This document shows positions 1,490 through 22,953 of a stretch of 50,164 bases of DNA, one piece after another. Position numbers and translations under genes: made by a program. The notes beneath the pieces were generated by a model. The model made no database searches, was not told where the DNA came from, and saw nothing but the letters and a program-made list of their open reading frames with translations. The stretch is taken from positions 1 to 50,164 of the forward strand of contig VGOE01000006.1 in the NCBI GenBank assembly GCA_016876035.1, written 5' to 3'. The number at the start of each line of letters is the position of its first letter. The first letter of the stretch is position 1. Origin of the DNA: Chloroflexota bacterium (GTDB lineage Bacteria > Chloroflexota > Dehalococcoidia > UBA2247 > RBG-13-53-26).

Positions 1490-2707
1490 ATGTGGGAACA
1501 GATCAGGTCTAACCAGATCAGGTCAATAGTGCTGGTAGCCATGATAGCGGGGCTGCTGCTCCTGCTGGGCTATGTTTTGGGTGCAGCCTTCCTGGGCAGC
1601 GGCATCGGCGGACTGGCTATCGCTCTGGTGATATGGGCAATACTGAATCTGGTGGCCTACTTCCAGGGAGATAGTATCCTGCTCTCGATGTCGCGGGCAA
1701 GGAAGATAAGCCGCGACGACAACCCCCGTCTGTACAACGTGGTGGAGGAGATGAAGATCGCCTCCGGGCTGGAGAAGATGCCGGACATCTATATCATCGA
1801 CGACCCGGCACTGAATGCCTTCGCCACGGGACGGGACCCCAACCGGGCCTCGGTGGCCATCACCTCCGGGCTGCTACAGAAACTGAACCGCGATGAGCTG
1901 CAAGGCGTCATCGCCCACGAAATATCCCACATAAAGAACCGCGATGTCCTGTTGATGTCGCTTTGCAGTATCCTCCTGGGGACCATCGTCATTCTGGCCT
2001 GGTACGCCTCGCGAATCATGATCTACGGGGGTATGCGGGGCGGGCGTCGGGGGGGGCGGGGAGGGGGCGGGGGGCAGGTGGTCATCATTGTGGTAGCTAT
2101 TGTCTTGATGATAATAGCGCCAATCCTGGCGCAACTGATTTACTTCGCCATTTCCAGAAGGAGAGAATATCTGGCTGACGCCTCGGGGGCGCTGTACACC
2201 AGGTACCCGGAGGGACTGGCCTCAGCACTGGAGAAGATAGCCGCTTCCACCGCCCAGTTGAAATCAGCGAATAAGGCCACCGCGCCGATGTACATCATCA
2301 ATCCCTTCCGCAGCGAAGGAAGGGCAGCCAGCGACTGGACCAGCACCCACCCTCCGATCTCGGAGAGGATAAGAATACTGCGGAGTATGGCCGGGGGCGC
2401 CTCACTGACGGACTATGACAAGTCCTACCAGCAATTTCACCGATCCGGCAAGGGGGTGATTCCGGCTTCGGCTCTTGGTGTGGTGAGTGTTATGGCGGTC
2501 ACGCCCGAGCCCGAAGCTTTAGCAGGGGAAGCAGATAAGATCGAGCGGGCGAGGGAGACCTCCGACATGCTGTGGAAGTTCAGCGAACACAGGCTGGTCA
2601 ACTGCGAATGCGGCACGAAGTTGAGGGTGCCCCCGGAGTTCAAGAGCGACACTATCCAGTGCCCCCACTGTGGAAGAACCAACCCCGTGCCCCCCAGGCA
2701 TAAATAG
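1490..2707 (+). CDS. htpX: HtpX-like M48 membrane metalloprotease with C-terminal zinc ribbon
   Basis: This 405-residue membrane protease carries the M48 zinc motif HEISH (H143, E144, H147), with the third ligand probably E226 in the RRREYLAD block. Hydrophobic segments lie near residues 12-32, 38-58, 155-175 and 197-220, matching HtpX topology with a cytoplasmic active site. Family members degrade damaged membrane proteins. Two additions are unusual. One is a Gly/Arg-rich loop at about 181-195. The other is a C-terminal CxC...CxxC zinc ribbon (C372, C374, C391, C394), making the protein longer than the roughly 290 residues of classical HtpX. The ATG at 1490 has only a weak ribosome site. Confidence 0.88.
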   Translation: MWEQIRSNQIRSIVLVAMIAGLLLLLGYVLGAAFLGSGIGGLAIALVIWAILNLVAYFQGDSILLSMSRARKISRDDNPRLYNVVEEMKIASGLEKMPDIYIIDDPALNAFATGRDPNRASVAITSGLLQKLNRDELQGVIAHEISHIKNRDVLLMSLCSILLGTIVILAWYASRIMIYGGMRGGRRGGRGGGGGQVVIIVVAIVLMIIAPILAQLIYFAISRRREYLADASGALYTRYPEGLASALEKIAASTAQLKSANKATAPMYIINPFRSEGRAASDWTSTHPPISERIRILRSMAGGASLTDYDKSYQQFHRSGKGVIPASALGVVSVMAVTPEPEALAGEADKIERARETSDMLWKFSEHRLVNCECGTKLRVPPEFKSDTIQCPHCGRTNPVPPRHK

Positions 2708-15715: not shown

Positions 15716-16031
15716 CTAACATCCAGCCTTATTGGGCGCCGAGTCATCCTTGGCGAAAGAACGGGCATCAGCACAGAATCCACCGGGGCAGACGACAACG
15801 CCATTGGGGCCATGCTGGTGCTCAGGCAACAACGCCATTCAACTGGCGCACCACTTTGACCCTTGCGGGGCTTTGGTAATTCTTGCACTGGATGCACAAC
15901 ACGACTTCGTTGCCTGCTTCCATAACACGACTGGCCTTGAAATCAATTCCCACGTCGCCAGTCAGCAGGGTGTTTCTACTACCCAATCCCGGTGTTCCAG
16001 GAGACCCTCCACATATTGCCCAAATTCTCAA
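15716..16031 (-). pseudogene. degraded Mrr-like restriction endonuclease fragment
   Basis: The frame from 16031 to a stop at 15822 encodes TGDVGIDFKAS, then CIQCKNYQSP and VRQLNGVVA. This is the D...QxK nuclease core typical of Mrr-type endonucleases. After the stop, a frame shifted by one base continues as GPNGVVVCPGGFCADARSFAK to a stop at 15716, matching the next conserved strand and helix of that fold. The gene therefore looks frameshifted, and its N-terminal half is missing or unrecognisable. It starts in a TTGA overlap with the SNF2 helicase stop, so it was probably the last gene of that operon. Assembly error could mimic the frameshift. Confidence 0.6.
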
Positions 16032-17920
16032 CCGCTCAGGTTGCTGTGATCAGGTGGTGGGCCTAGTCTCTTGGCAGAGGGCTTAGAACCCATTGGCGGG
16101 GTCAACCCGAATAGGCCGAATAGCTCTTCTGCACTCAAGCGTGTCTTAAGGTCGATAGAAACATCATCGACCACTTCGTCGAATAACAACTGCTTCTCCT
16201 GTAGAATTTGGTCAATTCTTTCTTCGATGGTAGCTTCGCAGACATACTGATAGACGTGCACCGGAAAAGATTGGCCCAGGCGATGGCTCCGATCTTCTGC
16301 CTGGTGCTCTACAGCGGGGTTCCACCAGCGATCGAAGTGAAAGACGTAGGACGCCTCCTGCAGGTTCAGCCCTAGCCCGCCAGCCCGCAAAGAAAGCACC
16401 AAAATCTTGTGAGAAGGGTCTTCTTTGAAGGTCTGAATGATTGCCTGCCTCTGTGGAGTCGTGAGAGCGCCAGTATATTCGAGAGGGCGGAAGTCATCTA
16501 ATGCAGAGGCTACGGCCTTAACCCCAAACTGCCCGCCAGCAAACTGTGAGAAGATCAATGCTCGATATCCCTCGCTCACCAATGTGCCGAGCCGTTCCCG
16601 GATATCATGCAGCTTAGCCGATTCCCCGGTCTTAGGGCAGAAATTGCAAATCTGTTTCAGTCTGAGTATCAACTCCAGAACGTTTTCGACATGAACCTCT
16701 TCTCCCAGGCTTCGTAACCACAGAATGCCTTGTTCTTCGGCTCTTTTGTAGCTCTCGCTCTGCGAATCACCCAGTGGTAGCATGACAGTGTTGATGATTT
16801 TGGGCGGGAGCTGTGTCAACACGTCAGCCTTCTTTCGGCGTAGCTGTACCTGCCGGTGCCTCTCTAACATCTTGGACTTGGCCTGGAATCTGACGGGTGT
16901 TTCACCTTTGTCAAGGGGGAACAGATACTCCAAGATAGACGCAAGGTCGTCCAGGCAGTTCTCCAGAGGCGTCCCTGTCAGTGCCCAGGCTCTTTTTCTG
17001 GCCAGGAGCTTGCATTTTTTGCTGGCCTCCGTCTCCCGGTTTTTGATCTTTTGCGCTTCATCAAGGATAGCCACATCCCAGGTTCGCCGACGGGGTGGTG
17101 ACGCTGGGTTACTTGTAAAATCGGAGCGTAATGTCTCATAAGTGGTCAAATACACATGGGCCGGCGCGCTCCATTGATACGCACGCTCTGCCGCTAGCCC
17201 ATGCACGGTTGAAACACGCAGCTCGGGTGCCCAGGTACGTATCTCTTTTCTCCATTGTGCCAGGAGACTCGCGGGAGCAATCACCAGCGCTGCTTCCATG
17301 CGGCGCTGGATGATGAGTATACGAAGGGCTGCAATTGCCTGGATCGTCTTTCCCAGGCCCATGTCGTCGGCGAGCAGCAGGGCATTGCTAGACATGAGTG
17401 CTTCGACACCTTCGACCTGGTAGGGAAAGAGTGTTCCGTGCCATTCCAATGGGCCTGAGGGGGAAATCAGGAGGCTTGTAGGTGGTTGAAGAAGATAGGC
17501 AAGGCGCCTGGCCAGCGAAGGCTTCTCTTCTGTTGTGGCTGCGGCTGGGCCGCGCAGTTTAATGCGTTCCCATAAGCGGTTTTCCGGAGTGTCTTCGGCG
17601 AGGATCGGACTCGCTGACTCTGTATCAGCCAAGACAGCAACGAGAACTACACTACCCCCTCCTGAGTTAGCCAATGCCATCTCTTTGCTGGGGACATTTT
17701 GGGCGGACGGAAAGGATGACTCTGCTGCCAGTATTGTCGGTTGGTCTGTCGAGATCTGGCAGTTAAGAGTGCTGGCCGGTGCTGTTCTTGCTGTCGGGAT
17801 GGATAGCAAGGCAGGAATAGCGGGTTTCAATGGCAGGGCGCGCTGGAATAGCCCCAACCAGCGAGCATTGGGCTCATGGACATTCTTGTCAAGTACCCAC
17901 CATGGTTCTGGAGAAGGCAC
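16028..17920 (-). CDS. SNF2-family DEAD/DEAH-box helicase/translocase
   Basis: The 630-residue protein has a full SNF2 ATPase. Walker A is DDMGLGKT (about residues 185-192), motif II is DEAQ (287-290) and motif III is LTGTPLEN (314-321). The C-terminal lobe shows SLRAGGLGLNLQEA, the FDRWWNPAVE block and HRLGQ. SNF2 proteins use ATP to translocate on double-stranded DNA and move bound proteins. The first 150 residues are not helicase and are unrecognised. Start is GTG 17920 with AGGAG upstream. It follows an unknown gene by 27 bases and the BrxD-like ATPase upstream of that. SNF2 or other helicases are standard parts of BREX, DISARM and TerB/DUF2791 gene sets. Confidence 0.88.
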   Translation of the reverse strand: MPSPEPWWVLDKNVHEPNARWLGLFQRALPLKPAIPALLSIPTARTAPASTLNCQISTDQPTILAAESSFPSAQNVPSKEMALANSGGGSVVLVAVLADTESASPILAEDTPENRLWERIKLRGPAAATTEEKPSLARRLAYLLQPPTSLLISPSGPLEWHGTLFPYQVEGVEALMSSNALLLADDMGLGKTIQAIAALRILIIQRRMEAALVIAPASLLAQWRKEIRTWAPELRVSTVHGLAAERAYQWSAPAHVYLTTYETLRSDFTSNPASPPRRRTWDVAILDEAQKIKNRETEASKKCKLLARKRAWALTGTPLENCLDDLASILEYLFPLDKGETPVRFQAKSKMLERHRQVQLRRKKADVLTQLPPKIINTVMLPLGDSQSESYKRAEEQGILWLRSLGEEVHVENVLELILRLKQICNFCPKTGESAKLHDIRERLGTLVSEGYRALIFSQFAGGQFGVKAVASALDDFRPLEYTGALTTPQRQAIIQTFKEDPSHKILVLSLRAGGLGLNLQEASYVFHFDRWWNPAVEHQAEDRSHRLGQSFPVHVYQYVCEATIEERIDQILQEKQLLFDEVVDDVSIDLKTRLSAEELFGLFGLTPPMGSKPSAKRLGPPPDHSNLSG

Positions 17921-17947
17921 CCTGATTTCTCCTGGAGGCGACCCTGT

Positions 17948-18514
17948 TCAGTGCTTCACAGTTGTGTGGTCGGAGTAGATCTCTTTCAGTCCTACCACGG
18001 CTCTGTCGAAGGGTTCAAGCAAAAGGCCGCGAGTGAGGAGGCGGTGGAGCAAGCGATGCTCATTGGAGTCGCCCGCGGGTTTGTCTGGAAACCAGAAGAG
18101 GTGATGCGGCTGTGGGTCTTCCACGGTTGTCTTCACTTCCAGCTTAGAGAATGAGGTTGCCTTCATAACAGAGGCAACACGACAGATTGGTATGGAGAGG
18201 CGTATTTCATTGCAGAACAGATCGTGATCAATCTCATCAGCCAGACAGATGATAAACTTGGGAACTCTAGGGCATGTGCCAAGCAAGGAAGTGACCAACT
18301 TGTGGATAGCATGTCTGCGTACATCAGCCTGTCGCCACAGAAAAGTGTGTGGCGCATCGACGCGGTTGTAGGTAAATTCCAGTGGTTCGCCTCTGGCATT
18401 GACCAGAAACAGTCCTCCTCGGAACGTACTGCCGTCATCTGAAGCATCGATTTTCAGATACCCTGCTGCTCCCAACTCCTCCACTTCGTCAGCATCGCGA
18501 AAGGGGATTGGCAT
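17948..18514 (-). CDS. unrecognised operon protein between BrxD-like ATPase and SNF2 helicase
   Basis: A 188-residue soluble protein with no family that I recognise. It has alternating beta-strand-like segments (GGLFLVNARGEPLEFTYN near residues 33-50; KFIICLADEIDH near 86-97) and ends with a helical, Leu/Arg-rich region. No signal peptide, membrane segment or Cys cluster is visible. It begins 24 bases after the BrxD-like gene and ends 27 bases before the SNF2 gene, so it is part of the same transcript. The position suggests an adaptor or effector of the system; this is inference only. Confidence 0.65.
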   Translation of the reverse strand: MPIPFRDADEVEELGAAGYLKIDASDDGSTFRGGLFLVNARGEPLEFTYNRVDAPHTFLWRQADVRRHAIHKLVTSLLGTCPRVPKFIICLADEIDHDLFCNEIRLSIPICRVASVMKATSFSKLEVKTTVEDPQPHHLFWFPDKPAGDSNEHRLLHRLLTRGLLLEPFDRAVVGLKEIYSDHTTVKH

Positions 18515-18538
18515 GGAGCTAGCCCTTATTCATCGCAT

Positions 18539-19816
18539 TCATAACTTCGTGTCGTTCTCATTGGGACTGTCCTCTGTCGTCATTTCCATCTCTGGCATCT
18601 CGGATAGATCCTGTTTTAACTCAGCCACCTCAATATCAGGTGTGTAACCCGGGTACAGGCGTTTCAAGTCCCACTCATTTATCCATCTTTTGATGTGCTG
18701 TCTGATGCGTAGTGTCCTGTCAATGACCCTGTAATCAGTGGAGGGGTTCCAGTCATAGGCGCTCGCATAGACGGCACGCACCTTATCATAGATCGCATGA
18801 ACAGTAGCCTCCGTGGGATCTTCTAGAGGTATCTTGTCTCGCCGGATGATGCGCATTCCTCGCTCAGCCTCGCTGGCCAGCAGTCGCTCTTCGTCAGTGT
18901 CTCCTGCTAGCAAACGGCCGGAGATCTTCTCTTCGTCGTTACGCTGATCAAGAACTGCGCTCTCAAAGTCGTCTGTGATAGAGAGCACGGTCGTTATTCC
19001 GGGAGCGTGACCCCTTTCCAACTTCCCCAGCAAGCGAGCTACCTCCGCATAAGACTTGGCCCGTTGTTTAAGGGAATATCGGCCAATAAGCTCGACTTCA
19101 TCTACCAGGATCACCCAACCAGCATAACCTGCCGCAATCATCAACCGGGGAGCAAACTGCCAACGCTGGGATGCAAGCTCTTTCGCCGACACTTTGTCAA
19201 TCTTGTAGGTGGCAGCCTCCCCCAACTCCTTGAGCCAAGTTCGCAATTCCCCCACCATTATGGGATCTCCTGACCAGAACTGTGTGATGCGGTGTGAGAA
19301 CTCGGGATAGCGATCACCCTTTCCCCGTTCGAAAACAAATACTGCAGCAGCAAAGCGTGTACTTAGTCCACTGTCTGTACGATTCACCCATTTGTAGAAC
19401 TCGGCATACTCAGTGCTTCTGAAATCCAGCTTCTGGGCGACTGCTGCAAGGGCGGCTCCGGCACGGTCTGGGACTATTGCAGATTGCACCGCAGCTTTGT
19501 ATACTTTGGCAAGATCATAGAGAGGCGTCTCCTTACTTACGACCACTTTGCTGCACACGAAATTGTTTTCTAGAGCAATATGCTGCAAGTATTCCAGCAA
19601 ATGGGACTTGCCTGAGCCAAAGCCTCCGGTAATGAGTGTCCCTTGCGTGGCTAATCCTTGAGAGAATGTCTCTCTTGCAGCGGCCAGTTGCTGTCTGAAC
19701 CGTTCTTCAATCCTGGACTGTGAGGTGCCCAGCGCTTGTACAGCGTCTCGGTTTGGCACCCCAGCACGCAGAGCCTCGATAGCACGCCAACTCTGGACTT
19801 GGACCGCTGATTTCAT
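18539..19816 (-). CDS. BrxD-like ATP-binding protein (BrxC/BrxD, DUF2791 family)
   Basis: This 425-residue ATPase begins with RAIEALRAGVPNRDAVQALG, the N-terminal signature I associate with BREX BrxD. It has Walker A GGFGSGKS (residues 64-71), the SKETPLYD block near 94-101, and Walker B VILVDE (235-240). Family members are AAA-like ATPases of BREX type 2 and of TerB/DUF2791-helicase gene sets. The ATG at 19816 overlaps the upstream gene's TGA as ATGA, so translation is coupled. The longer upstream frame, which would add 35 residues, is out of place within the previous gene. No pglX methylase or pglZ gene is present in the window. Confidence 0.85.
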   Translation of the reverse strand: MKSAVQVQSWRAIEALRAGVPNRDAVQALGTSQSRIEERFRQQLAAARETFSQGLATQGTLITGGFGSGKSHLLEYLQHIALENNFVCSKVVVSKETPLYDLAKVYKAAVQSAIVPDRAGAALAAVAQKLDFRSTEYAEFYKWVNRTDSGLSTRFAAAVFVFERGKGDRYPEFSHRITQFWSGDPIMVGELRTWLKELGEAATYKIDKVSAKELASQRWQFAPRLMIAAGYAGWVILVDEVELIGRYSLKQRAKSYAEVARLLGKLERGHAPGITTVLSITDDFESAVLDQRNDEEKISGRLLAGDTDEERLLASEAERGMRIIRRDKIPLEDPTEATVHAIYDKVRAVYASAYDWNPSTDYRVIDRTLRIRQHIKRWINEWDLKRLYPGYTPDIEVAELKQDLSEMPEMEMTTEDSPNENDTKL

Positions 19817-20820
19817 AGAGAGCCTCCTGTAGACTGCAGAATGACCGTGGTGGCTTGTCCAGAGAGGCGAACCAGTGACGAAAGTGGATTGGGTCTTTGC
19901 TGGTCGCGGACTTCGTCCCAAATGCGCAGCTTAAGCGCCTGATAGGCACTCAAGCCTCGTTTGTCTGCCTCTGGTGCCAGAAAGTCTGGCGGAGCTAAGA
20001 CAATCATCAGACAGAACTGAAGCTCGTCGGTGCCATCGACGAACTGGCGCAGAACTTCATACCCATCCAGAACACCAGGGCCACTGTAGTATATCGTTCC
20101 GTTTGGCTCTTTGGGTCGTCTTGCTTCCAGGAAGCGTGAAATATCCAGAGTTATGACAAGGCCTGTCTTGCCCGCAGCATGTAACCAGTGAGATAAAGAG
20201 AATAGCATGTGTCGTCCGTTGTGGCGGCCGATCTTCTGGAATATCGACGCTGATTTCAATGCAGAGATCAGGCGCAGTTCTCCGCGAAGCCATTCCCTAA
20301 CGGCCTCTGCCGTCCCTATCCCAACATCTTGTGGGTCCAATTGCGTCTGGCAGAGCCTGAGCATAGCCATTCGGAACTCTTGTGTCATGTGATAGTCTTT
20401 GTAAAGGCGATCCCTAAGCCTATTATTGACCACGCGCCGCATCTCACCCACTTCTAGACCATTGAGCAACGCAAGTTGCGATAGGCCAAGGTCAGCTCGA
20501 CTGGCAGGCACAAGATAGTGACTTTCTGACAAAGTGGAGCACAGAAAGCTGCAGACAAGATCCTCCCAATTCACCTGTCTGGCAACGGTGTGGAATATCT
20601 TGTCGATCATGTGGGCTTTGGTGGTGGCGGCGTCCACGGAGGCAAAAAGATAACCGCTGTCTTCGGCTACTTGCCTCAGTTTACTCAATACAACCTTGTG
20701 CTCTCGCCACTCTAGTGGTACCACGAACTTGACGGCAGCGCCCCCTCCCTTGATAAAATCCCCCAGATACTCCTGGGAAAGCACTACCAGCCAATCATCG
20801 ACAGGCATCGATTTTGCCAT
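19813..20820 (-). CDS. BrxC/D-like protein apparently lacking Walker A
   Basis: A 335-residue protein resembling the partner often found just before BrxD-like ATPases. It has YLGDFIKGGGAAVKFVVPL (about residues 12-30), VDAATTKAHMIDKIFHTVARQ, and TGLVITLDISRFLE as a Walker B-like strand near 213-226. No GxxxxGKS/T is visible, so it is probably not an active ATPase but may assemble with the next protein. Start is ATG 20820, 8 bases after AAGGAG; an alternative GTG at 20829 overlaps the previous stop. It ends in a 4-base overlap with the BrxD-like gene. Family assignment rests on pattern memory, not on a search. Confidence 0.65.
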   Translation of the reverse strand: MAKSMPVDDWLVVLSQEYLGDFIKGGGAAVKFVVPLEWREHKVVLSKLRQVAEDSGYLFASVDAATTKAHMIDKIFHTVARQVNWEDLVCSFLCSTLSESHYLVPASRADLGLSQLALLNGLEVGEMRRVVNNRLRDRLYKDYHMTQEFRMAMLRLCQTQLDPQDVGIGTAEAVREWLRGELRLISALKSASIFQKIGRHNGRHMLFSLSHWLHAAGKTGLVITLDISRFLEARRPKEPNGTIYYSGPGVLDGYEVLRQFVDGTDELQFCLMIVLAPPDFLAPEADKRGLSAYQALKLRIWDEVRDQQRPNPLSSLVRLSGQATTVILQSTGGSL

Positions 20821-20825
20821 AATTG

Positions 20826-21632
20826 TCACTCCTTGGAGCCCTTGATGAAGGAGATACCATAGTAGCGTTTTTCTTCCCCTGTCTCGGTGATAACGCCAAT
20901 TGTGCGGCTAGGGGTCTTGGTTCCGGTGCTCGATGGAAAACGCACCTTGGCTCCGCCTTTTGTACTATCAACGCCGCTGCGGTGAAGAAGATAGATGTCA
21001 CGAGCGAACTCTTGCTTGGTGTATTCCTTAGCTTGCCCCGGCAGCAATGTCAAAAGGTCGTAGATGTCCACCAATGGGATGACAGGGGCCATTTGCAGGA
21101 GTTCCTTGCCGCGCATAGCCACGGCTTTCGAATAGGCCTTATACAATGCTTCCAGGAAGGCCTCTGGCCTAAAGAGAGGGGGTTTGCGCTGCAATTCTCG
21201 CAGTCGGCTCACCAATACAGATGGACGAATGCGAGTCTCACGCTTCTTGTCAACGAATACGGCCTTATCGCTGGAGGATATTTTGATGAGTACAGGATAG
21301 CAGTACAAGCGATCGTCGCGCTCGAAAATGCTCACGTCCATTTGCCGACCGACGGCGACGATCTCTCTGGAATAGAGCCCCCCGGCGAAATAGCTCTCTT
21401 CGTCAAATGTCCAGCCCTCTTTGGCATTGGCAAATTGTTGCCGGAGAGCAGCCATGCCTTTCTCAACAGCTTCTACGGAAGAGCGCAGTTCTCGGAGGTT
21501 GCCCACCTTGGCTGCAGTACGGAATCTACGCAGACTGCGCACAATGGCATCGGCTGCCTTCAGGGTGACTACAACATCCGCTTCGGTCTTAGCCAGGGCC
21601 TGCTCAAGACTCTGTCCATCACTGCTCTGCAT
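20826..21632 (-). CDS. first gene of the BrxD/SNF2 operon, unrecognised
   Basis: The 268-residue protein has a helical N-terminal half (residues 1-75, rich in Ala, Leu, Arg and Glu), a strand-rich middle (EESYFAGGLYSREIVAVGRQM; FERDDRLYCYPVLIKIS) and a helical C-terminal region ending with a basic loop before YYGISFIKG. I do not recognise a named family. Start is ATG 21632 with an AGGAGG site; an upstream in-frame GTG at 21662 has no site. The gene lies 78 bases after a strong predicted promoter and leads into the BrxC/D-like gene. The basic tail may bind nucleic acid, which is inference. Confidence 0.7.
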   Translation of the reverse strand: MQSSDGQSLEQALAKTEADVVVTLKAADAIVRSLRRFRTAAKVGNLRELRSSVEAVEKGMAALRQQFANAKEGWTFDEESYFAGGLYSREIVAVGRQMDVSIFERDDRLYCYPVLIKISSSDKAVFVDKKRETRIRPSVLVSRLRELQRKPPLFRPEAFLEALYKAYSKAVAMRGKELLQMAPVIPLVDIYDLLTLLPGQAKEYTKQEFARDIYLLHRSGVDSTKGGAKVRFPSSTGTKTPSRTIGVITETGEEKRYYGISFIKGSKE

Positions 21633-21716
21633 ATTTCCTCCTGATACACTGTAACTGCCCACCCCCGGTTTCTATGCCTGATGAAGCTCTTCTTATTGTT
21701 GCTGTTCTCAACACAG

Positions 21717-21745: not shown

Positions 21746-21915
21746 GCCGTCCAGCTTTCATAGTTTTTCCACTCCAGATTAGTAGAGTTGATCCCCACTA
21801 CCCCCAAGACCTCCTCAATACACCAAGAGCATATCCATAGCCTGAAAACTGTATAGTGGCTCCTGGACGCGGCACACTGGCTTGTTGCGAAATGCTCTTG
21901 ACAGGGAGTAGTATT

Positions 21916-22527
21916 ATGATAATAGGATTGTATGAAATGCAGACCAACATCTACAGAAGAAAACTACTTAATAGCATATTGTTCCTTGCCAAGAAAACCA
22001 AGCATCTGAATACCACCAAGCTAGCCAAGCTGCTCTATTTCTTGGACTTCGACCACTTCAAGCAGACTGGATATCCTTCTATAGGCCTTAGATATTACGC
22101 ATTTAAGTGGGGGCCTGTGCCAAAAGAATTTTGGCTAGAGATGAAGGATGGCAATATACCAGAAGACTTTAAGGGTAAGCTGGCAATAATACCGAGAACA
22201 GACGAACTTGACCCGGACTCTAAGGGAGGATACGAATTCAAGGCTATCTCAGAACCAGATTTATCCGTTTTCACCCCTCGAGAAAGGAAGATATTGGATC
22301 GGCTGGCTGAGATTTATAGGGATGCTAAGGCCTGGCAGATTTCAGAAGTCTCTCATTTACCAGGGCAACCTTGGGATGTCACGATCAAGAAATGCGGTGA
22401 GAACTGTCCTATAGATTATCTTCTCGCCATCGATGAAAAATCAGAGATTAGCTTTGACGACGCAAAAGAATGCCTGAAAGAACACTTTGAAGCTGTACGC
22501 AACCTCGACCTTGAACCAACGAAATAG
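21916..22527 (+). CDS. Panacea-domain (DUF4065, SocA-like) protein, probable antitoxin
   Basis: This 203-residue protein contains the Panacea pattern: LNTTKLAKLLYFLDFDHFKQTG (about residues 30-51) followed by RYYAFKWGPVPKEFW. Panacea domains act as promiscuous neutralising domains in many toxin-antitoxin pairs and as proteolysis adaptors (SocA). The ATG at 21916 follows GGGAG by seven bases; an ATG at 21937 is an alternative. Fifteen bases downstream is a small protein with MazF-like beginnings, so the two look like a bicistronic toxin-antitoxin unit. The pair is visibly more A+T-rich than the surrounding metabolic genes, which suggests transfer. Confidence 0.75.
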   Translation: MIIGLYEMQTNIYRRKLLNSILFLAKKTKHLNTTKLAKLLYFLDFDHFKQTGYPSIGLRYYAFKWGPVPKEFWLEMKDGNIPEDFKGKLAIIPRTDELDPDSKGGYEFKAISEPDLSVFTPRERKILDRLAEIYRDAKAWQISEVSHLPGQPWDVTIKKCGENCPIDYLLAIDEKSEISFDDAKECLKEHFEAVRNLDLEPTK

Positions 22528-22542
22528 CTTCATAGAGGCTTG

Positions 22543-22953
22543 ATGCCGCAACCTGGAGAAATCCTCTGTTATTACGACTGGTCGTTCGAAAACGGTTCAA
22601 AGGCAGACAAGCTTCTCGTTGTTCTGAATGTAGCTGATACTGATTGCCCATGCCTAGTTCTTAAGACAACTTCACAATCAAGACGATACCAAAATGTGGT
22701 CAGAGGCTGTAATGTGCAGAAACGAGTATTCTTCATTCCCGTTGATTGGGAAGATTGCTTTTCACTCGATACATATGTTCAGCTACCACAGATTCTGGAA
22801 ATATCTACGCGAGACCTGTTGCAGGGACATTTTGCAGGGCAAATTCGTAGGCTAGGCTGCCTCTCAGTCGATTGCTTTACCCAACTCAAGAATTGTCTCA
22901 AGCAATTTAGAGCAGACATATCTGCACAGCATTGGAAGCTAATCTTCGGCTAG
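22543..22953 (+). CDS. small protein with PemK/MazF-like start, probable toxin partner
   Basis: The 136-residue product opens PQPGEILCYYDWSFENGSKAD KLLVVLN, resembling the GDIV...F...KRRP-x-LVLS opening of PemK/MazF-like barrels, although the Arg-Pro after the loop is replaced. Later strands (CPCLVLKTTSQ; RVFFIPVDWEDCF) and the short helix after EISTRDLL fit the same small beta-barrel layout. MazF-like toxins are mRNA interferases or ribosome poisons; the key residues are not certain here. GAGG precedes the ATG at 22543. Pairing with the Panacea gene is the main support for a toxin role. Residue spacing is broken here only for readability. Confidence 0.55.
   Translation: MPQPGEILCYYDWSFENGSKADKLLVVLNVADTDCPCLVLKTTSQSRRYQNVVRGCNVQKRVFFIPVDWEDCFSLDTYVQLPQILEISTRDLLQGHFAGQIRRLGCLSVDCFTQLKNCLKQFRADISAQHWKLIFG

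What the first reader, a model, noticed from the sequence alone, without database searches (positions are those of the whole stretch)
21916..22953. Panacea antitoxin with a divergent MazF/PemK-like partner next to the defence operon
The Panacea domain pattern is clear. The downstream 136-residue protein starts like PemK/MazF but lacks the usual Arg-Pro after the first loop. Panacea domains are known to neutralise unrelated toxins, so a new pairing is plausible. The pair is A+T-richer than its surroundings, suggesting recent arrival.
Basis: partly seen in the sequence, partly recalled or inferred. Interest (0 to 1): 0.6.

Follow-up and report, generated by a model that had tools for sequence, protein, structure and literature searches.

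The report
Panacea antitoxin with MazF-fold toxin
Two adjacent genes in a Chloroflexota genome look like a bacterial toxin-antitoxin pair, a MazF-shaped RNA-cutting toxin held in check by a Panacea-domain protein, which is a genuine but already described kind of pairing.

Summary
Window 21937-22527 encodes a Panacea protein (PF13274, E 4.5e-17). Window 22543-22953 encodes a 136-residue protein that no tested sequence library recognises. The pair recurs, antitoxin first and 15 bases apart down to overlapping by 4, at six other loci spanning Chloroflexota, Nitrospinota and Proteobacteria. An AlphaFold2 model of the small protein (pLDDT 87) has the MazF/Kid/CcdB/CptN toxin fold: the 28 best PDB matches are MazF/Kid/CcdB/CptN or named toxin structures. 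A profile-profile comparison with class-level PemK proteins beats 300 of 300 column shuffles. The MazF catalytic Arg-Pro is replaced by an invariant Lys-Leu, while the Thr-Thr-Ser motif is kept. Most likely this is a type II panAT module whose toxin is a divergent MazF-fold endoribonuclease; toxicity and neutralisation are inferred, not shown. The pairing is not new: Kurata et al. 2022 validated two Panacea-neutralised toxins predicted to be MazF-like RNases. The neighbouring BrxC/D-helicase operon is a separate unit, since a relative carries it without the pair and the other pairs lack it. What is new is a toxin family without a library profile and its Lys-for-Arg active site.

The parts
21937..22527 (+). 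panA-like antitoxin gene: standalone Panacea (SocA/DUF4065) domain plus C-terminal helix, 196 aa; alternative upstream start at 21916
   Evidence: PF13274 E 4.5e-17 and weak NF047745 SocA hit far below cut-off; conserved start and 62-66% identity in Chloroflexota homologues, 36-39% in other phyla; only Panacea match in this genome
22528..22542 (+). 15-base spacer between the two genes
   Evidence: same 15-base spacing in L008 and L009; genes overlap by 1-4 bases in L010, L011, L012
22543..22953 (+). panT-like toxin gene, 136 aa, MazF/Kid-fold; invariant G5, D22-K23-L24, T42-T43-S44, G55-C56, P66, F73, T77, E86
   Evidence: no Pfam/NCBIfam/PADLOC/PHROG/PDB-sequence match; AlphaFold2 pLDDT 86.9, pTM 0.82; Foldseek best hits MazF, Kid, CptN, CcdB; hhalign to PemK 29.5 against shuffles 11.2 +/- 2.1
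21898..21936 (+). putative promoter/operator and leader of the pair: TTGACA...AGTAGTATTAT...; similar sequence before L009 and L014, part of it before L011
   Evidence: side-by-side comparison of the 120 bases upstream; not tested statistically

Best explanation
The two genes form one self-contained type II toxin-antitoxin module of the panAT kind. The second gene makes a small MazF-fold protein that most likely cuts cellular RNA and stops translation, using Lys23 and Thr43/Ser44 where MazF uses Arg and Thr. The first gene makes a Panacea protein that binds the toxin directly and keeps it off. The antitoxin gene comes first and the two are probably co-transcribed. Shown here: the domain, the pairing across phyla, the fold by prediction, and purifying selection on both genes. 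Inferred: toxicity, RNA cleavage, direct neutralisation, and release of the toxin under a trigger such as phage infection.
For: Panacea domain. Antitoxin-first pair conserved at six other loci in three phyla, with spacing from 15 bases to a 4-base overlap. Toxin model pLDDT 86.9; the top 28 PDB matches are all MazF/Kid/CcdB/CptN or named toxin structures, best E 6.1e-4, TM-score by target mostly 0.61-0.74 and 0.50 for CptN; viral library top hits are PemK/endoribonuclease. Profile-profile match to PemK beats 300 of 300 shuffles and the reversed profile. Third codon positions change about two to three times as often as second positions; NG86 dN 0.2-0.4 with dS above 1 or saturated. A read-through model of the two genes as one chain has pTM 0.81 despite a disordered join (pLDDT about 36 at 191-200), which suggests a confident relative placement of the two proteins. 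Panacea-neutralised toxins predicted MazF-like inhibit translation in published assays.
Against: No toxicity or neutralisation data exist for this family. The catalytic Arg-Pro is absent. PF02452 does not match even at E 10. Only one PDB fold match passes E 0.001. The read-through model ties the two proteins together by a short join and has no negative control.
Confidence: 0.8

Rival explanations
1. Panacea-neutralised toxin of the same fold that is not an RNase but acts on another target, for example DNA gyrase as CcdB does.
For: CcdB shares the fold and appears among the matches (2vub, E 0.031); the MazF Arg-Pro is missing.
Against: MazF structures score better than CcdB; the Thr-Thr-Ser motif and a basic residue at the Arg position are invariant in the seven close family members; the PemK profile match is significant.
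Confidence: 0.1
2. A non-toxic regulatory or structural pair in which the MazF-fold protein has lost catalysis and merely binds RNA or the Panacea protein.
For: Loss of the canonical Arg; no experiment shows toxicity.
Against: Conservation of the putative active-site residues and of the pair in three phyla, with patchy distribution typical of toxin-antitoxin modules.
Confidence: 0.07
3. The pair is an accessory part of the adjacent minus-strand BrxC/D-helicase operon.
For: It lies 0.27 kb from the operon's first gene, divergently oriented.
Against: Relative G005 has the operon at 58-70% identity and no Panacea gene; none of the six other pairs lies beside that operon in the flanks held.
Confidence: 0.03

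Closest known systems
panAT systems with MazF-like PanT (P. moraviensis, B. ruminantium; Kurata et al. 2022, PMC8832971)
   Same: Panacea antitoxin next to a small toxin with no CDD hit that is predicted to be EndoA/PemK/MazF-like; translation inhibited, Panacea neutralises
   Different: sequence relationship to those two toxins could not be tested here; this family's Asp-Lys-Leu / Thr-Thr-Ser signature and hosts are its own
MazF/PemK/Kid mRNA interferases (PF02452)
   Same: fold, order of strands, Gly-Glu-Ile start, Thr-Ser motif, C-terminal Gly-x-Leu-Ser helix
   Different: no PF02452 match, Arg-Pro replaced by Lys-Leu, inserted Gly-Cys loop (residues about 50-65), Panacea rather than a MazE/AbrB antitoxin
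ToxN/CptN type III endoribonucleases
   Same: fold (4rmo, E 0.018); ToxN uses Lys33, Thr52, Ser53 (PMC5086642), comparable with Lys23, Thr43, Ser44 here
   Different: no PF13958 match; protein antitoxin, whereas type III uses an RNA antitoxin; equivalents of ToxN Tyr29 and Lys55 not evident
SocAB (type VI)
   Same: antitoxin shares the Panacea/SocA domain
   Different: NF047745 SocA score 40 against a cut-off of 190; SocB is a replication inhibitor removed by proteolysis (PMC8832971), with no sign of relation to this toxin

Membership tests
Panacea-containing antitoxin (PanA) | PF13274 above curated cut-off | tested here: met
   63.4 bits against 25.7
Panacea-containing antitoxin (PanA) | conserved two-gene neighbour with a putative toxin | tested here: met
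   six other distinct loci in three phyla
Panacea-containing antitoxin (PanA) | neutralises the partner by direct binding | not testable with these tools
   only indirect: read-through model pTM 0.81
MazF/PemK (PF02452) | PF02452 above curated cut-off | tested here: not met
   no match at E 10 in six members
MazF/PemK (PF02452) | MazF/Kid fold | tested here: met
   Foldseek best hits, TM-score up to 0.74, on a predicted model
MazF/PemK (PF02452) | catalytic Arg(-Pro) after first loop | tested here: not met
   invariant Lys23-Leu24 at that column
MazF/PemK (PF02452) | Thr/Ser at the end of the third strand | tested here: met
   Thr42-Thr43-Ser44 invariant and aligned to PemK ...TS(Q)
MazF/PemK (PF02452) | sequence-specific RNA cleavage | not testable with these tools
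   needs an assay
ToxN/CptN type III | RNA antitoxin of tandem repeats upstream | not tested
   no repeat search was run on the upstream region; a protein antitoxin gene occupies the place
ToxN/CptN type III | PF13958 match | tested here: not met
   no match for P0002 at E 1 against Pfam

The most novel reading that the evidence does not exclude
A MazF-fold ribonuclease family with a ToxN-like Lys/Thr/Ser active site that is controlled by a Panacea protein, bridging protein-neutralised (type II) and RNA-neutralised (type III) RNase toxins and possibly with its own RNA specificity.
Probability: 0.2. Interest if true: 0.5.

Novelty: new member of a known kind. Interest (0 to 1): 0.32.

Why it matters
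It adds a clean, phylum-spanning toxin family to the Panacea network that profile libraries miss, with an invariant Lys where MazF has its catalytic Arg. If active, it tests directly how far the MazF active site can drift, and how a standalone Panacea domain reaches a MazF-fold toxin.

Tried and rejected
Single-sequence and profile searches of the small protein against Pfam, NCBIfam, PADLOC, PHROGs and PDB sequences gave nothing credible; the profile's peptide deformylase (E 0.029) and telomerase protein (E 0.097) hits are taken as chance, since they do not agree with the fold. tblastn against plasmids and phages found no relative of the toxin. A PF13958 search of 197 genomes rang nowhere, controls included, so it says nothing. 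The idea that the pair belongs to the adjacent defence operon was rejected. In L068 a canonical PemK gene lies about 330 bases after an HTH-Panacea gene, but a separate mazEF cannot be excluded, so it was not counted as a Panacea-PemK pair.

Full report
What is there. Window 21937-22527 (+) encodes a standalone Panacea protein and 22543-22953 (+) a 136-residue protein, 15 bases later. PF13274 matches the first at E 4.5e-17, over its cut-off. Similar promoter-like sequence lies just upstream in the window, L009 and L014, with part of it in L011. The genome has no other Panacea gene.

The partner is unknown to sequence libraries. No match for it was found in Pfam, NCBIfam, PADLOC, PHROGs or PDB sequences, nor for six family members in Pfam or NCBIfam at E 10.

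The pair is conserved. Relatives of the small protein were found in 3 other genomes of 393 sampled in the class, one of them only a 34-residue remnant, in none of the phylum sample but the window's own genome, and by collection scans in Chloroflexota, Nitrospinota, a Proteobacteria bin and two viral contigs, one of which matches the Proteobacteria bin. All six distinct full-length loci besides the window have a Panacea gene immediately upstream on the same strand. Spacing runs from 15 bases to a 4-base overlap. Between Chloroflexota members and L014 both genes change mostly at third codon positions; dN is 0.2-0.4 with dS above 1 or saturated.

Fold. AlphaFold2 with six sequences in the alignment gave pLDDT 86.9 and pTM 0.82. 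Foldseek against PDB: ranks 1-28 are MazF, Kid, CcdB, CptN or named toxin structures; the best is E. coli MazF 5cr2, E 6.1e-4, and TM-scores by target reach 0.74, among others for M. tuberculosis MazF-mt3. Top viral hits are PemK and endoribonuclease proteins. Independently of structure, an hhalign comparison of the family with 21 PemK proteins from the same class scored 29.5; 300 column shuffles gave 11.2 +/- 2.1, maximum 20.5, and the reversed profile 12.8. The protein is therefore a distant relative of PemK, outside PF02452 as curated.

Active site. A joint alignment puts invariant Asp22-Lys23-Leu24 on the PemK x-Arg-Pro position and Thr42-Thr43-Ser44 on the PemK ...Thr-Ser(-Gln) position. 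That this Arg and Thr are the catalytic pair of MazF is from my own knowledge of the family. ToxN, a type III toxin of the same fold, uses Lys33, Thr52 and Ser53 (PMC5086642), so Lys in this place is compatible with catalysis. That review also notes that ToxN and Kid active sites do not match well, so this is a lead only. A wider set of Panacea partners in the class (L053, L054, L063, L064) matches the family profile at E 6e-8 to 4e-6 and has Pro-His-Tyr/Phe and Ser-Ser at these positions.

Neutralisation. Panacea proteins are shown in the literature to bind their toxins (PMC8832971), and either the domain core or an added segment does the work (PMC10440598). Here the two genes are in frame, and reading the TAG between them as Gln let both be modelled as one chain: pTM 0.81, with the join disordered. 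My estimate is that two independently floating domains of these sizes would give about 0.55-0.6, so the value suggests a definite interface.

Neighbourhood. On the minus strand, 16028-21662 holds a 278-aa protein, two BrxC/D-type ATPases, a 188-aa protein and an SNF2 helicase. G005 of the same family has the same block at 58-70% identity without a Panacea gene. In G003 and G004 the acyl-CoA dehydrogenase that lies downstream of the pair (67 and 64% identical) is preceded by what I read, from unsearched ORF sequences, as electron-transfer flavoprotein genes, whereas in the window it is preceded by the pair. No other genome of the family or order that was sampled has the pair. With 44% G+C against 52-54.5% around it, acquisition by transfer is likely. 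In most other hosts the pair is also A+T-richer than its flanks, so low G+C is partly a property of the pair itself and does not date its arrival.

Comparison and verdict. Kurata et al. 2022 reported PemK among Panacea neighbours and validated two Panacea-neutralised toxins predicted MazF-like that block translation. The present pair is therefore a new member of a known kind. Its distinguishing points are the lack of any library profile, the invariant Lys and the spread across three phyla at low frequency. Toxicity, RNA cleavage and neutralisation remain to be tested.

Noticed in passing
window 16028-21662, minus strand: Five-gene block: 278-aa protein of unknown family, two BrxC/D-type ATPase proteins (overlapping genes), 188-aa protein, SNF2 helicase related to ZorD/DpdE. 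No single PADLOC system fits; same order in G005 and partly in G058. Possible undescribed defence system.
   Followed up: partly
L010 around 1908-1922 (same locus as L002): The Panacea gene of this homologue has an in-frame TAG at its fifth codon, so the antitoxin would need an internal start or may be damaged while the toxin frame is intact.
   Followed up: partly
L053 2005-2442, L054 890-1342 (-), L063 686-1207, L064 890-1360 (-): A second, more distant set of Panacea partners with IRPGSV(Y/F)YF...PH(Y/F)FIV(V/I)N and SSQ/SSK motifs, without a meaningful Pfam match, that matches the present toxin profile.
   Followed up: partly
window 21898-21936; L009 and L014 upstream; L011 upstream in part: Similar sequence TTGAC[AG]...AGTAGTATAAT/TATTAT directly before the Panacea start; a shared promoter or operator, although these Panacea proteins have no obvious HTH.
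   Followed up: partly
L006 about 1501-1602 (minus): Remnant encoding only the last 34 residues of the toxin in genome G306: a decayed copy.
   Followed up: no
L014 1-1334 (minus): In this viral contig the pair lies about 0.56 kb from a large restriction-modification type protein with an N-6 methylase motif.
   Followed up: no
L068 1111-2601: HTH-Panacea gene followed about 330 bases later by a canonical PemK gene (PF02452 E 2.4e-24); may be a Panacea-PemK pair or a separate mazEF.
   Followed up: no
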